Below, piece by piece: positions 31,850 to 34,959 of a stretch of 64,000 nt of DNA. A program made the position numbers and the translations under genes. The DNA is from Arthrobacter sp. cf158 (lineage in GTDB: Bacteria; Actinomycetota; Actinomycetes; Actinomycetales; Micrococcaceae): positions 223,182 through 287,181 of the forward strand of contig NZ_FNNR01000001.1 in the NCBI RefSeq assembly GCF_900106835.1, read 5' to 3'. Within the stretch, counting starts at the first letter, position 1; each line of letters starts with the position of its first letter. The notes beneath the pieces are model-generated. The model did not search any database. It was given only the letters and a program-made list of their open reading frames with translations, and was not told where the DNA came from.

Positions 31850-32188
31850 GCCTACAACGGTGGTGGCGGCGGTTGGCTCAGCGGGTTCGAACGGGTGGCT
31901 TGTGGGGGAAGAGTTGGTTAACAGGTGGGTTGGATGGCTTCCGGCTCATCGAGTAGGACTCAAAAGACGGTCAAGTGGGTGAGGTTACCTTCGAAAGTTG
32001 TGGAACACGCTTGAAGCCAGTCCTGCCGGAGCGCGCTGTAGGGCGGTGGTCCGCAAGCTCTAGGACTCGACCGTCGTTGTTCCCAGCTGGTCCCAGCCGG
32101 TGATCCGGCTGTCAGCAAAGGATCCTGAGGAATTACACAGGCGTTTCTGGCCTACGTCCATGAGTTGCACTTTAGAGTGGTTGCAATT
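31850..32188. other. Intergenic region between glycosyltransferase and defence module
   Basis: About 340 bp with no supported gene. The right part becomes AT-rich and holds TTGCAC, TTTAGA and TTGCAA hexamers in front of the extended -10 element at 32189. It marks the left border of the AT-richer SLATT-RT segment; no direct repeats or attachment site were recognised here. Confidence 0.45.
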
Positions 32189-32197
32189 TGCTAGAAT
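32189..32197 (+). promoter_or_regulatory. Extended -10 promoter for the SLATT-RT module
   Basis: TGCTAGAAT is an extended -10 element (TGn followed by TAGAAT) in an AT-rich stretch. Transcription would start near 32204, two bases before the 5-prime arm of the long-range stem at 32206. The 35 region is not well defined (TTTAGA at 32171 is a candidate). Confidence 0.5.
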
Positions 32198-32205
32198 TTA
32201 CGTTG

Positions 32206-32338
32206 GTCCGGCCGCTTGCTCACGTGTTGTGGGCAGAACTGAAAATTGGTGGCTTAGAGCCGCTCACCCTCTGGGTGTGCTCGCTTGCGGGTATTGATAG
32301 ATTGCAAAGCCCTTCGGGAAACCGTTGAGCGGCCGGAC
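32206..32338 (+). ncRNA. Candidate structured leader RNA of the SLATT-RT module
   Basis: GTCCGGCCGCT (32206-32216) and AGCGGCCGGAC (32328-32338) are perfect reverse complements, closing a domain of about 133 nt. Inside are a 7-bp hairpin (32217-32223 with 32229-32235, one G-U pair), a GGCT/AGCC hairpin at 32251-32261, a 5-bp hairpin CACCC-TCT-GGGTG (32265-32277), and a CCC-UUCG-GG tetraloop hairpin at 32310-32318. It lies between the promoter and the AGGAG of the SLATT gene. Several defence reverse transcriptases use a non-coding RNA encoded beside them as template, so this may be such an RNA; alternatively a leader controlling translation. Confidence 0.55.
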
Positions 32339-32356
32339 TTATGACTAGGAGACGCA

Positions 32357-32920
32357 ATGGGGTCACTGGAAAAGCTGGAGGATCGCTCCTTCAAGTCCTA
32401 CAAAGGACGCATGCACGCATCTCAAAGACTTGCACTTCGAGACAAAGCATGGAATGCATCCCTTCTTTCGCTTACAGTGGCAACGACAATAGCGTCCGTA
32501 GGCTTGCTGGCCGACAGCCGAATGTATGGCTCGGGTGGCCCGACTATCTTCGTCTGCCTCGCCGTCCTATCATTGGTTATTTCGTTGGTTGTTGCAGGTC
32601 TCAATTACGGAGCACGTAGTAGGGATCTATTCAACAACTATCGGCGCATTCAGAGACTATCAACGGAAGTTGAGCACCTGCGCACTCGAGACCATGCGCC
32701 TGATTATGCCGAAGTCAAGGTTTTGCTAGACCGGTACAACGATCTTCTTGATGATTCAGAGAACCACAATGCCTCTGACTTTGCTCGAGTCGGCAAGTCT
32801 GGTAGATGGTCATGGCTTGTGTTGCGGGACAGATCTATCTCGGCACTTCCCTTTGTCACGCTTCTTGTACCAATTGGTGTGCTTGTTCCCTTCGTTCAAT
32901 GGCTTATGCGTGCTGTCTAG
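32357..32920 (+). CDS. SLATT-domain membrane effector (SLATT_5-like)
   Basis: 187 residues. An N-terminal amphipathic start (KLEDRSFKSYKGRMHASQRL) leads into two transmembrane helices (about 34-51 and 62-82), a helical cytoplasmic region (90-135), and a third hydrophobic segment at the C-terminus (161-183). This is the SLATT fold, predicted as a pore-forming effector in conflict systems; the SLATT_5 branch is known to pair with reverse transcriptases. AGGAG is 6 bases before ATG 32357. The gene overlaps the reverse transcriptase frame by 11 bp. AT-rich codon use differs from flanking genes. Confidence 0.82.
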   Translation: MGSLEKLEDRSFKSYKGRMHASQRLALRDKAWNASLLSLTVATTIASVGLLADSRMYGSGGPTIFVCLAVLSLVISLVVAGLNYGARSRDLFNNYRRIQRLSTEVEHLRTRDHAPDYAEVKVLLDRYNDLLDDSENHNASDFARVGKSGRWSWLVLRDRSISALPFVTLLVPIGVLVPFVQWLMRAV

Positions 32921-34298
32921 CCACAAGCGTTCACCAAGTCGATACTTTCTTAGTCTAACGGCGCCCACAAATCTTAAAGAGACTTACGCAAGCCATGTTC
33001 AGAGTGGTGGCGCCCGAGGTCGAGATGGCGTTGAACCTCATGCTCTAGAGCGCGACATCGGGAACATATCCCAGTTGATCTCCCGAAAGATGCGGGCTGG
33101 AACGTATCGATTCACTTCTTATCGTCAACTACTGATCTCAAAAGGTGCCAGTCGCCCGCCCCGTGTCGTGTCGATCTCTACTGCTAGGGACCGGATTGCT
33201 CTCAAGTCCTTGGCGTTCCTGATTCAAGCTGTCTTTCCCGAATCTCGAGGCCGAGTGCCGCAGGCTAAGGTGACTCAGCTTAACCTTGCCCTTCAGAAGA
33301 ATGAGTTTGATGGGTTTGTCCGGTTGGACATTGAGAATTTCTATCCGTCCATCTCACATGCGGCGATCATGCGGACTCTGCGCCAGAAGATTCGAAAGAA
33401 GGAAATTCTTGCGCAGATCGAGTGTGCCATCAAGACGCCGACCCTTGCTGACCATGCTCCTCGCTCAGACGTACAAAGTGACCGTGGCGTTCCCCAAGGC
33501 CTACCGATATCCAACCTACTTGCTGAGATTGCAATGGAAGAAATTGATCGGCGGTTTGGCACCGATACTCGAATGTTCTATCTTCGTTATGTGGATGATA
33601 TTGTCATTCTTTGCAATTCGACGGACTCGGTGTCTATTTGTGAAGAGGTAACAAAGGCGTGCTCCGATATCGCGCTTACGGTCCATGATCCACGACTCAT
33701 TGGATCAAAATCGCAAATTGGTCTGATGTCCGAATCGATTGACTACTTGGGATATGTATTCTCATCCGGAAAAGTAGCAGTCAGGTCGGATAGTGTCAGT
33801 AAATTGAAGGCCTCCATTGCCAGGGTCTTCACTCGGTATAAGTACGAAGTTCGTAAGCATGAGGGCGATGATGTGGCCGAGTTGAGGGCCCGCACGGAAT
33901 GTCTGTGGAAGCTTAAGCTGGTGATAACCGGGTGTCTTTTTGAAGGCAAGCGGCGAGGTTGGCTTCACTATTTCTCGCAGATAGACGACCTTCCCACCCT
34001 GAAGGGTCTTGATGCCACGGTCAGGAACTTCGCCCATCGATTCGGGCTGGCTGACGACTTTCTACCGAAGACATTCACTCAAGCATTCTGGAGAATTAAC
34101 CACGGTGATCCGGGAGACGGTCAGTACATTCCAAACTTTGATTTGTACACACCAGCGCAGATGCGAAAGGTTCTAATCGAAGTTTTTCAAATGGTTGGTG
34201 CTGATCATTTTAGCGATGATACTGCGCGCAGGAATTTCCATAGAGAGGTCAAGCGCTTGGCCGATAAACTTGAACACGACATCTCCGGGGTCTCTTGA
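32910..34298 (+). CDS. Defence-associated reverse transcriptase
   Basis: About 462 residues. RT fingers/palm motifs are clear: motif A FVRLDIENFYPSI (Asp140), the GVPQGLPISNLLAEI motif (193-207), catalytic LRYVDDIVIL (YVDD 227-230) and the following helix and sheet of RVT_1. The C-terminal about 200 residues are alpha-helical with no known domain; no maturase or integrase is present, so it is neither a group II intron nor a retrotransposon enzyme. GTG 32910, overlapping the SLATT stop by 11 bp, is the best start, without a clear ribosome site. Likely an abortive-infection type RT that triggers SLATT. Confidence 0.85.
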   Translation: MLSSHKRSPSRYFLSLTAPTNLKETYASHVQSGGARGRDGVEPHALERDIGNISQLISRKMRAGTYRFTSYRQLLISKGASRPPRVVSISTARDRIALKSLAFLIQAVFPESRGRVPQAKVTQLNLALQKNEFDGFVRLDIENFYPSISHAAIMRTLRQKIRKKEILAQIECAIKTPTLADHAPRSDVQSDRGVPQGLPISNLLAEIAMEEIDRRFGTDTRMFYLRYVDDIVILCNSTDSVSICEEVTKACSDIALTVHDPRLIGSKSQIGLMSESIDYLGYVFSSGKVAVRSDSVSKLKASIARVFTRYKYEVRKHEGDDVAELRARTECLWKLKLVITGCLFEGKRRGWLHYFSQIDDLPTLKGLDATVRNFAHRFGLADDFLPKTFTQAFWRINHGDPGDGQYIPNFDLYTPAQMRKVLIEVFQMVGADHFSDDTARRNFHREVKRLADKLEHDISGVS

Positions 34299-34335
34299 CG
34301 TTACTTGGGAGCTGGCGTCACGTGTGCCAGCCACC

Positions 34336-34824
34336 CTATGGCTGCTCCTGGGTCGGAGCCGTACCCCCACGGTGTCCGGTGGCGCTATCGGTTCTGGGCT
34401 CTGCACCCCGAGCCTCCTTCAGATCCTTCCGCAACCCACGGTTATCTTCCCGTAGCCCGCGGTTGTCGTCAGCCAGCCCTTTGTTGTCCTCCGTCAACCC
34501 CCGGTTCTCCGCCTCGAGTTCCAGCACCAGCTTCACGCCGGCCAGGTTCAGCCCCTCATCAAGGAGCGCCCCGATCCTGCGCAGCGTCGCGAGGTCGTTT
34601 TCGCTGTATCGGCGAGTGCCGCCGTCGGTCCTGCCAGGGGTGAGCAGGCCCTTGCGTTCGTATTGGCGGATGTTCTGCTGCCCGGTGCCAACGAGCTCGG
34701 CAGCCACCGAAATCGCGTAGACGCCGCGCGTGCCCGGCCCCGCACCTGAGGTGCCGTGCGCGCCGGAAGCCGACAGTCCGCCGTCGTACTCCTCAGCAGG
34801 AGTTCCGCCGTCCGATGCCGCCAT
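34336..34824 (-). CDS. MerR-family heat-shock regulator (HspR-like)
   Basis: 162 residues. The MerR helix-turn-helix begins at about residue 36 ([41 protein letters not shown]), as in HspR. Residues 107-134 are four perfect heptads of the type N-x-G-L-x-x-D, a predicted coiled coil. The first 33 residues are Gly/Ser-rich. GGAGG stands 6 bases before ATG 34824. It is divergent from hsp20 across 135 bp, so it probably represses that gene. A dyad CCAGCC-11-GGCTGG (34896-34918) lies between them. The canonical HspR inverted repeat was not found. Confidence 0.8.
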
Positions 34825-34959
34825 CAAGAACCTCCAAAAATCTTCCGGAAAACTACTTGCATCAACTCTCTCACCAGTGCTATAAAAAATCTATACCAGC
34901 CACCAGAGATAAGGCTGGCACAACAGAGTCAGCATCAAGACCAAAGGAGTGAGAACCAC

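What the first reader, a model, noticed from the sequence alone, without database searches (positions are those of the whole stretch)
32206..32338. Long-range stem closes a structured leader RNA in front of the SLATT-RT genes
An 11-bp perfect stem (32206-32216 with 32328-32338) encloses 111 nt with at least three local hairpins, one with a UUCG tetraloop. It starts a few bases after an extended -10 promoter and ends before the SLATT ribosome site. Several defence RTs copy a neighbouring structured RNA. This leader is a concrete candidate for such a template or a regulatory RNA.
Basis: partly seen in the sequence, partly recalled or inferred. Interest (0 to 1): 0.82.

Follow-up and report, generated by a model that had tools for sequence, protein, structure and literature searches.

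The report
Template RNA of a DRT10 phage-defence system
The folded RNA in front of the membrane-protein and reverse-transcriptase genes is, very probably, the template RNA of DRT10, a recently described telomerase-like bacterial defence system against viruses, here in an Arthrobacter-like bacterium.

Summary
The 11-bp stem is exact, and a covariance model built from four other actinobacterial loci, without the window, finds the window RNA at 32203-32341 (58.6 bits, E 2e-14; the only other listed match in 64 kb has E 0.72). The closing stem and five inner hairpins show compensatory changes. The 11-bp stem alone would be unremarkable; homology makes it real. The RT is UG17 and its neighbour SLATT_5. 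UG17 + SLATT + upstream ncRNA is DRT10 (Tang et al. 2025 preprint), whose RT copies a short A-B-A' segment of this RNA into tandem-repeat DNA primed from the RT's own C-terminal serine. The window RT ends in serine.

New here: a loop variant in eight actinobacterial RNAs (an extra covarying hairpin between template loop and closing stem); a template prediction, GAU-A-GAU giving (TATC)n, or AUUG-AUAG-AUUG giving (CTATCAAT)n; gain at a variable site. Against: the A-B-A' repeat alone is not significant (27% of shuffled loops), and in the naked RNA a competing fold is 3.7 kcal/mol more stable than one with the conserved template-boundary hairpin. No expression or cDNA data were available.

The parts
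32187..32197 (+). extended -10 promoter element TTTGCTAGAAT, expected start about 32204
   Evidence: read in sequence; not listed by the sigma-70 scan; inference
32203..32341 (+). DRT10-type ncRNA, 139 nt as matched by the covariance model
   Evidence: R1 (built without the window) 58.6 bits, E 2.2e-14 in 64 kb; one match in the 5.1-Mb genome with R2
32203..32216 (+). closing stem, 5' arm
   Evidence: covariation
32328..32341 (+). closing stem, 3' arm
   Evidence: covariation
32217..32235 (+). hairpin SL2 (numbering mine, fitted to the paper's)
   Evidence: 8 pairs, 92.3% of cells paired
32236..32246 (+). conserved single-stranded core GAACTGAAAAT (CTGATAA in most of the aligned homologues)
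   Evidence: alignments
32249..32263 (+). hairpin SL3
   Evidence: 5 pairs, 95.8% paired
32265..32277 (+). hairpin SL4
   Evidence: 75% paired, the weakest helix
32279..32292 (+). hairpin SL5, the presumed template boundary
   Evidence: conserved by alignment (90% paired) but pair probability only about 0.01 in the window RNA alone
32289..32312 (+). competing hairpin that replaces SL5 and holds part of the template in its loop
   Evidence: MFE of the window RNA; the fold is 3.7 kcal/mol better than the best fold with SL5 forced
32293..32304 (+). candidate template A-B-A': AUUG-AUAG-AUUG (32293-32304) or GAU-A-GAU (32296-32302)
   Evidence: not significant on its own
32315..32324 (+). hairpin SL6, CGG-GAAA-CCG, between template loop and closing stem
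   Evidence: 4 of 4 pairs change on both sides, 90% paired
32347..32351 (+). AGGAG ribosome site of SLATT
   Evidence: sequence
32357..32920 (+). SLATT_5 membrane protein gene, 187 aa
   Evidence: Pfam SLATT_5 95.4 bits; PADLOC RTasSLATT 216.5 bits
32910..34298 (+). UG17/DRT10 reverse transcriptase gene, 462 aa from a GTG start (start inferred from alignment); YVDD codons 33588-33599
   Evidence: PADLOC RT_UG17 472.4 bits, next family 116.4 bits; alignment A1
34293..34295 (+). codon of C-terminal Ser462, the presumed primer residue

Best explanation
32203-34298 is a complete DRT10 system: a ~139-nt ncRNA, a SLATT membrane effector and a UG17 reverse transcriptase. Proposed working: the RNA is transcribed from the promoter at 32187-32197, alone or as the 5' part of the operon mRNA, and is bound by the RT. 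The RT copies a short segment in the loop 3' of SL5, starting from the hydroxyl of its own last residue, Ser462. At the SL5 boundary the cDNA lets go, re-anneals to the downstream copy A' and is copied again, giving long single-stranded tandem-repeat DNA, (TATC)n or (CTATCAAT)n. The cDNA in turn controls the SLATT pore and so phage defence. Shown here: gene identities, RNA homology, covariation, serine end. Shown by others for E. coli homologues: RNA binding, copying, priming, defence. Inferred: everything about this locus in action. How the cDNA acts on SLATT is a proposal of the authors, not shown.
For: RT_UG17 at 472.4 bits and RTasSLATT at 216.5 bits. UG17 = DRT10, with ncRNA upstream of SLATT, closing stem plus small stem-loops, SL5 before the template loop, A-B-A' template, C-terminal serine primer. 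Window RNA found by a model built without it, E 2.2e-14 (the four training RNAs were trimmed at their closing stems by eye). Covariation: 14 of 43 pairs with changes on both sides in five sequences vs 6.4 in shuffles, 92.3% vs 84.1% of cells paired; 29 of 32 pairs in 28 distinct sequences (alignment fitted to the model). The RNA match ends 549-634 nt before the RT homology start, room for one SLATT gene, in 36 of 39 loci with both (L105 and L117 723; L124 1025, its RT match begins at residue 165); SLATT is annotated in between in L065 and L074-L076. E. coli loci L075 and L076 match model R2 (61 bits) and hold CAATGATTCCAAT, the published Eco3DRT10 template plus A', tying the model to the characterised system. 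The window RT ends in Ser; so do 42 of 51 distinct homologous RTs whose alignment reaches residue 457 or beyond (Tyr 7, Arg 1, Lys 1), and 51 of all 64.
Against: No expression, RIP or cDNA data for this locus. A direct repeat as long as the window's occurs in 27% of shuffled loops; the position-specific test on eight actinobacterial loops gives P 0.085. In the naked window RNA, SL5 is disfavoured by 3.7 kcal/mol against a hairpin that uses its 3' arm. No terminator-like site was listed between RNA and SLATT, so a mature ~139-nt species would need processing or another kind of ending. 30 of 70 sources given to model R2 had no match, some divergent, some because the stretch held starts close to the RT.
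Confidence: 0.93

Rival explanations
1. The element is a cis-acting leader (attenuator or regulator of SLATT-RT translation) and not a template.
For: It lies in the 5' leader, ending 15 nt before the SLATT start, without a listed terminator in between; a competing hairpin exists.
Against: The homologous E. coli RNA is bound by the RT and copied, and its deletion abolishes defence. Helices and spacing recur with the RT family in Actinomycetota and E. coli. No Rfam family matches the window at gathering score. A secondary regulatory role is not excluded.
Confidence: 0.05
2. It is a DRT10 RNA but the locus is inactive: the template-boundary hairpin is lost to the competing fold, so no repeat is made.
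For: SL5 pair probability about 0.01; SL5 fold 3.7 kcal/mol above MFE; A-B-A' not significant alone.
Against: RT and SLATT frames are open, with YVDD and the terminal Ser; SL5 columns keep pairing; one homologue, L073, also has no predicted SL5 pairing in isolation while its RT frame is open; the loop of the characterised Eco3 type, L075, is not significant in the same shuffle test either (P 0.16); protein binding can select a minor fold.
Confidence: 0.12
3. Chance inverted repeat.
For: Eight 11-mer stem matches of this kind in the window vs a mean of 3.4 in shuffles.
Against: Independent model hit and covariation.
Confidence: 0.01

Closest known systems
DRT10 (UG17), Eco3DRT10 of E. coli, Tang et al. 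2025 preprint PMC12632851
   Same: Gene order ncRNA-SLATT-RT, UG17 RT with YVDD, C-terminal serine, ncRNA of similar length (137 vs 139 nt) with closing stem, small stem-loops and a template loop after SL5; model R2 reaches both.
   Different: RT about 35% identical to the E. coli RTs of L074-L076. The window and 7 actinobacterial relatives have 34-43 nt with an extra hairpin (SL6) between SL5 and closing stem, against 17-23 nt in the other 20 distinct sequences. SL5 is weak in the window.
DRT9 (UG28)
   Same: Upstream ncRNA, occasionally SLATT; ncRNA structure said by the authors to resemble that of DRT10.
   Different: RT matches Drt9 at 70.3 bits against 472.4 for UG17; no poly-U tract in the loop.
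DRT3a
   Same: Second-best PADLOC family (116.4 bits); copies a short repeat, ACACAC, from a loop placed like that of DRT10 (passages of PMC13174585).
   Different: Works with a second RT, DRT3b; no second RT among the eight window genes scanned. 'SLATT' does not occur in that paper's main text.
Eukaryotic telomerase RNA and TERT
   Same: Works alike by the authors' account: template plus alignment segment and a template boundary element; the RT profile also reaches solved TERT chains weakly (E 4e-6).
   Different: DRT10 is protein-primed and compact.

Membership tests
DRT10 | RT of group UG17 | tested here: met
   472.4 bits over profile 4-428 of 429; next 116.4 bits
DRT10 | adjacent SLATT protein | tested here: met
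   SLATT_5 95.4 bits, RTasSLATT 216.5 bits, overlapping the RT start; 82% of UG17 RTs have SLATT_5 (passages of PMC8934634)
DRT10 | structured ncRNA upstream of SLATT, homologous to the family's | tested here: met
   model R1 without the window, E 2.2e-14; model R2 also hits the E. coli loci with the published template sequence
DRT10 | stable stem-loop SL5 directly before the template loop | tested here: inconclusive
   conserved pairing in the alignment, but pair probability about 0.01 in the window RNA alone
DRT10 | A-B-A' pattern in the template loop | tested here: inconclusive
   two overlapping patterns present; P 0.27 against shuffles; position test P 0.085 over 8 loops
DRT10 | C-terminal Ser or Tyr as primer | tested here: met
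   Ser462 is the last residue; Ser or Tyr last in 49 of 51 distinct RTs aligned to the end; priming itself not tested
DRT10 | tandem-repeat cDNA and phage defence | not testable with these tools
   needs miniprep-seq and plaque assays
DRT9 | UG28 RT and poly-U template | tested here: not met
   Drt9 70.3 bits against UG17 472.4; no U tract in the loop
Known Rfam RNA families (riboswitches, leaders) | match at the curated score | tested here: not met
   0 matches in the whole window

The most novel reading that the evidence does not exclude
Actinobacterial DRT10 systems form a variant with ultrashort repeat units (4-5 nt; template GA-N(2-3)-GA starting 3 nt after SL5 in 7 of the 8 loops seen, L056 being the exception; in the window GAUA, product (TATC)n) and a template loop bounded on both sides by hairpins, SL5 and SL6; in the window the template can also be shut inside an alternative hairpin that competes with SL5, a possible built-in switch.
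Probability: 0.22. Interest if true: 0.55.

Novelty: new member of a known kind. Interest (0 to 1): 0.42.

Why it matters
DRT10 is proposed as a bacterial relative of telomerase. An actinobacterial member with a different loop anatomy and a concrete, falsifiable repeat prediction helps define which RNA features are essential (template boundary, A-B-A', second boundary hairpin). It also shows that a reader of raw sequence picked out the likely template RNA without any tool.

Tried and rejected
Chance stem: rejected by the independent covariance model, although the stem alone is not unusual. Known RNA families and tRNAs: none. UUCG tetraloop: the preferred hairpin is GAAA-capped. A-B-A' as stand-alone proof: fails its shuffle test in the window and in 19 of 20 loops tried (only L061, P 0.03), so it is reported as a prediction only. 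A phage as the source: 14 of 50,697 phage records match at E 1e-10, none over 80% of the RT, though many IMG/VR contigs carry relatives. Solved structures: among 26 chains at E 1e-5 none is named DRT10 or UG17, the best being group II intron RTs; the best SLATT match has E 0.85. AlphaFold of the RT was not run: the tool's description lists no coordinates, which the Ser462-to-active-site distance would need. More actinobacterial loci were sought with few gains: strong matches in 3 of 394, 2 of 391, 2 of 396 and 1 of 2 genomes, with repeats of genomes already in hand.

Full report
What is there. The RNA region 32203-32341 is followed by AGGAG (32347-32351), a SLATT_5 gene (32357-32920) and an overlapping RT gene (32910-34298, GTG start inferred). 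The 11-bp stem of the finding is exact. Alone it is not remarkable: 8 perfect 11-mer inverted matches at 6 places, with 60-150 nt loops, occur in the window, against a mean of 3.4 (range 0-11) in 20 dinucleotide shuffles. The whole fold is better than 200 of 200 shuffles.

What it belongs to. PADLOC's UG17 model scores the RT 472.4 bits; the next, Drt3a, 116.4. In the preprint of Tang et al. (PMC12632851; I read abstract, introduction, results and discussion, and the first of two parts of the figure legends; supplements not readable) UG17 is named DRT10: a ncRNA upstream of SLATT, SLATT and RT together give phage defence in E. coli; the RT binds the RNA and copies a 9-nt segment into tandem repeats, primed by the C-terminal Ser456 (likely Tyr444 in Eco1), with an A-B-A' template after stem-loop SL5. 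The pairing of UG17 with SLATT_5 was known before: 82% of UG17 RTs in a 2021 survey (PMC8934634, passages only). Five paper searches (listings) showed no second paper on the DRT10 ncRNA; the DRT3 preprint and the DRT9 paper mention DRT10 or UG17 (passages only). The latter cites a finding that sbcB is essential in strains with UG17. The library lacks most subscription papers.

Test of the RNA. Relatives came from whole genomes, GTDB contigs, plasmids, E. coli genomes and IMG/VR. A covariance model from four actinobacterial RNAs (L028, L029, L056, L059, trimmed at their closing stems by eye), the window left out, finds 32203-32341 with 58.6 bits and E 2.2e-14; the only other listed match in the window has 9.1 bits and E 0.72. 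Over 69 sources R1 matched 12 at E up to 1, four of them its own training sequences and one the window. A second model, from those 12, matched 40 of 70 sources at E up to 1: 37 at E 0.012 or better and 3 weak (L119, L105, L117). 30 sources had no match, among them divergent loci (L030, L060, L066-L070, L078 and others), stretches that start close to the RT (for example L088, L089) and the relic L021. Some RT loci whose stretch starts at or near the RT were not given to the model (for example L083, L087, L094, L127). The window's own genome has a single match.

Covariation. On a sequence-only alignment of five RNAs, window included, 92.3% of cells form standard pairs (shuffled 84.1) and 14 of 43 pairs change on both sides (shuffled 6.4; 0 of 500 shuffles as high); sliding by one to three columns drops paired cells to 30-47%. 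The structure was derived from that same alignment, which favours it. The closing helix keeps 98.6% of cells paired with 5 of 15 pairs changed on both sides; SL4 is the weakest helix, 75%. On the fitted alignment of 28 distinct sequences, the 3 weak matches included, 29 of 32 pairs change on both sides, 91.6% paired (such an alignment leans towards its structure).

Link to the characterised system. E. coli loci L075 and L076 carry TTCAATGATTCCAAT in the loop. This contains CAATGATTC followed by CAAT, the reverse complement of the published Eco3 motif GAATCATTG plus the four-base A'. Both score 61 bits with the second model. The relation between window RNA and Eco3 RNA is therefore by homology, not only by analogy.

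The RT end. The window RT ends ...HDISGVS. Among 64 distinct homologous RTs the last residue is Ser in 51, Tyr in 9, Lys in 3 and Arg in 1; among the 51 of them aligned to residue 457 or beyond, Ser in 42, Tyr in 7, Arg and Lys in 1 each. The larger count includes proteins whose alignment stops early (for example L113 at 398). Three of the four Lys or Arg cases have a Tyr one or two places before the last residue; in the fourth, L103, the reading frame ends early.

The template. Of 28 distinct loops I tested 22 for position (8 actinobacterial and 14 others; six near-duplicates among the others left out). In the 14 others, a repeat of three or four bases starts four bases after the SL5 column, that is three nucleotides after the stem, in 11; the mean there is 3.0 against 1.67 in shuffles (0 of 5000; relatedness ignored). 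L109, L104 and L119 do not fit. For the eight actinobacterial loops the mean is 2.25 against 1.69, P 0.085. In the window that position gives GAU-A-GAU; a longer but differently placed option is AUUG-AUAG-AUUG. Neither is significant by itself: 27% of shuffled loops reach a four-base repeat, and 19 of 20 loops tried this way, the Eco3-type L075 included (P 0.16), do not pass 0.05. I rank GAUA, product (TATC)n, slightly above AUUGAUAG, product (CTATCAAT)n.

A weak point. Folded alone, the window RNA prefers a hairpin at 32289-32312 that uses the 3' arm of SL5 and holds part of the template in its loop; SL5 pairs have probability about 0.01, and forcing SL5 costs 3.7 kcal/mol. Of ten homologues tried, SL5 pairs had probability 0.45 or more in eight and 0.0 in L073; for L056 my search string did not find the hairpin. 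Either the RT selects SL5, or the window's RNA works differently, or it is impaired.

A clade feature. The window and seven actinobacterial RNAs (L027, L028, L029, L056, L059, L061, L073) have 34-43 nt between SL5 and the closing stem, against 17-23 nt in the other 20 distinct sequences, which are E. coli, Pseudomonas or unnamed IMG/VR records. In the five-sequence alignment this stretch holds a further hairpin, all four pairs of which change on both sides, 90% of cells paired; in L027, L061 and L073 I see it by eye only (CUCC...GGAG). The main text of the preprint describes four small stem-loops; whether its supplement shows this fifth one I cannot tell.

Distribution and context. Among 206 genomes of the genus only the window's own has a strong match (22 have some match at E 0.001; the next best is 55 bits). 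In the order, 5 of 396 genomes, the own one included, have strong UG17 matches (349-472 bits; next 132). In a relative (G034, locus L163) the flanks that match window positions up to 31947 and from 34404 lie 86 bases apart, so about 2.4 kb with the whole DRT10 system is extra here. Two other relatives (L165, L166) keep the same flanks but hold genes for FG-GAP-repeat proteins between them, and in the 5 kb taken of a third (L164) only the right flank matches: a variable site. The only flank match in the plasmid collection is 131 bases of Arthrobacter sp. StoSoilB13 at 93.9%, so the host is most likely Arthrobacter-like; the genome itself is unnamed.

Verdict. It is a new member of a system described in October 2025, with an actinobacterial loop variant and a testable repeat prediction.

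Noticed in passing
L021:1501-1605: A congeneric genome (G074) holds a 34-residue stretch, 56% identical to the C-terminal end of the window RT, near a resolvase-like reading frame (by eye): probably a relic of a lost DRT10 RT; no ncRNA match in that 3.1-kb stretch.
   Followed up: partly
window 31947-34404: Variable site: 86 bases in one relative, genes for FG-GAP-repeat proteins in two others, the DRT10 system here.
   Followed up: partly
L028:838-1356: The SLATT gene of this actinobacterial locus aligns only over residues 1-133 of 187, possibly frameshifted or truncated.
   Followed up: no
L074 and L075, template loop: E. coli loci with nearly the same upstream sequence by eye differ in the template (CAACGGTTC vs CAATGATTC), fitting relaxed selection on template sequence.
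   Followed up: no
window 34336-34827: MerR-like regulator (by eye) before an Hsp20-like gene (by eye); weak PADLOC mad1 match (35.2 bits), probably only a shared DNA-binding domain.
   Followed up: no
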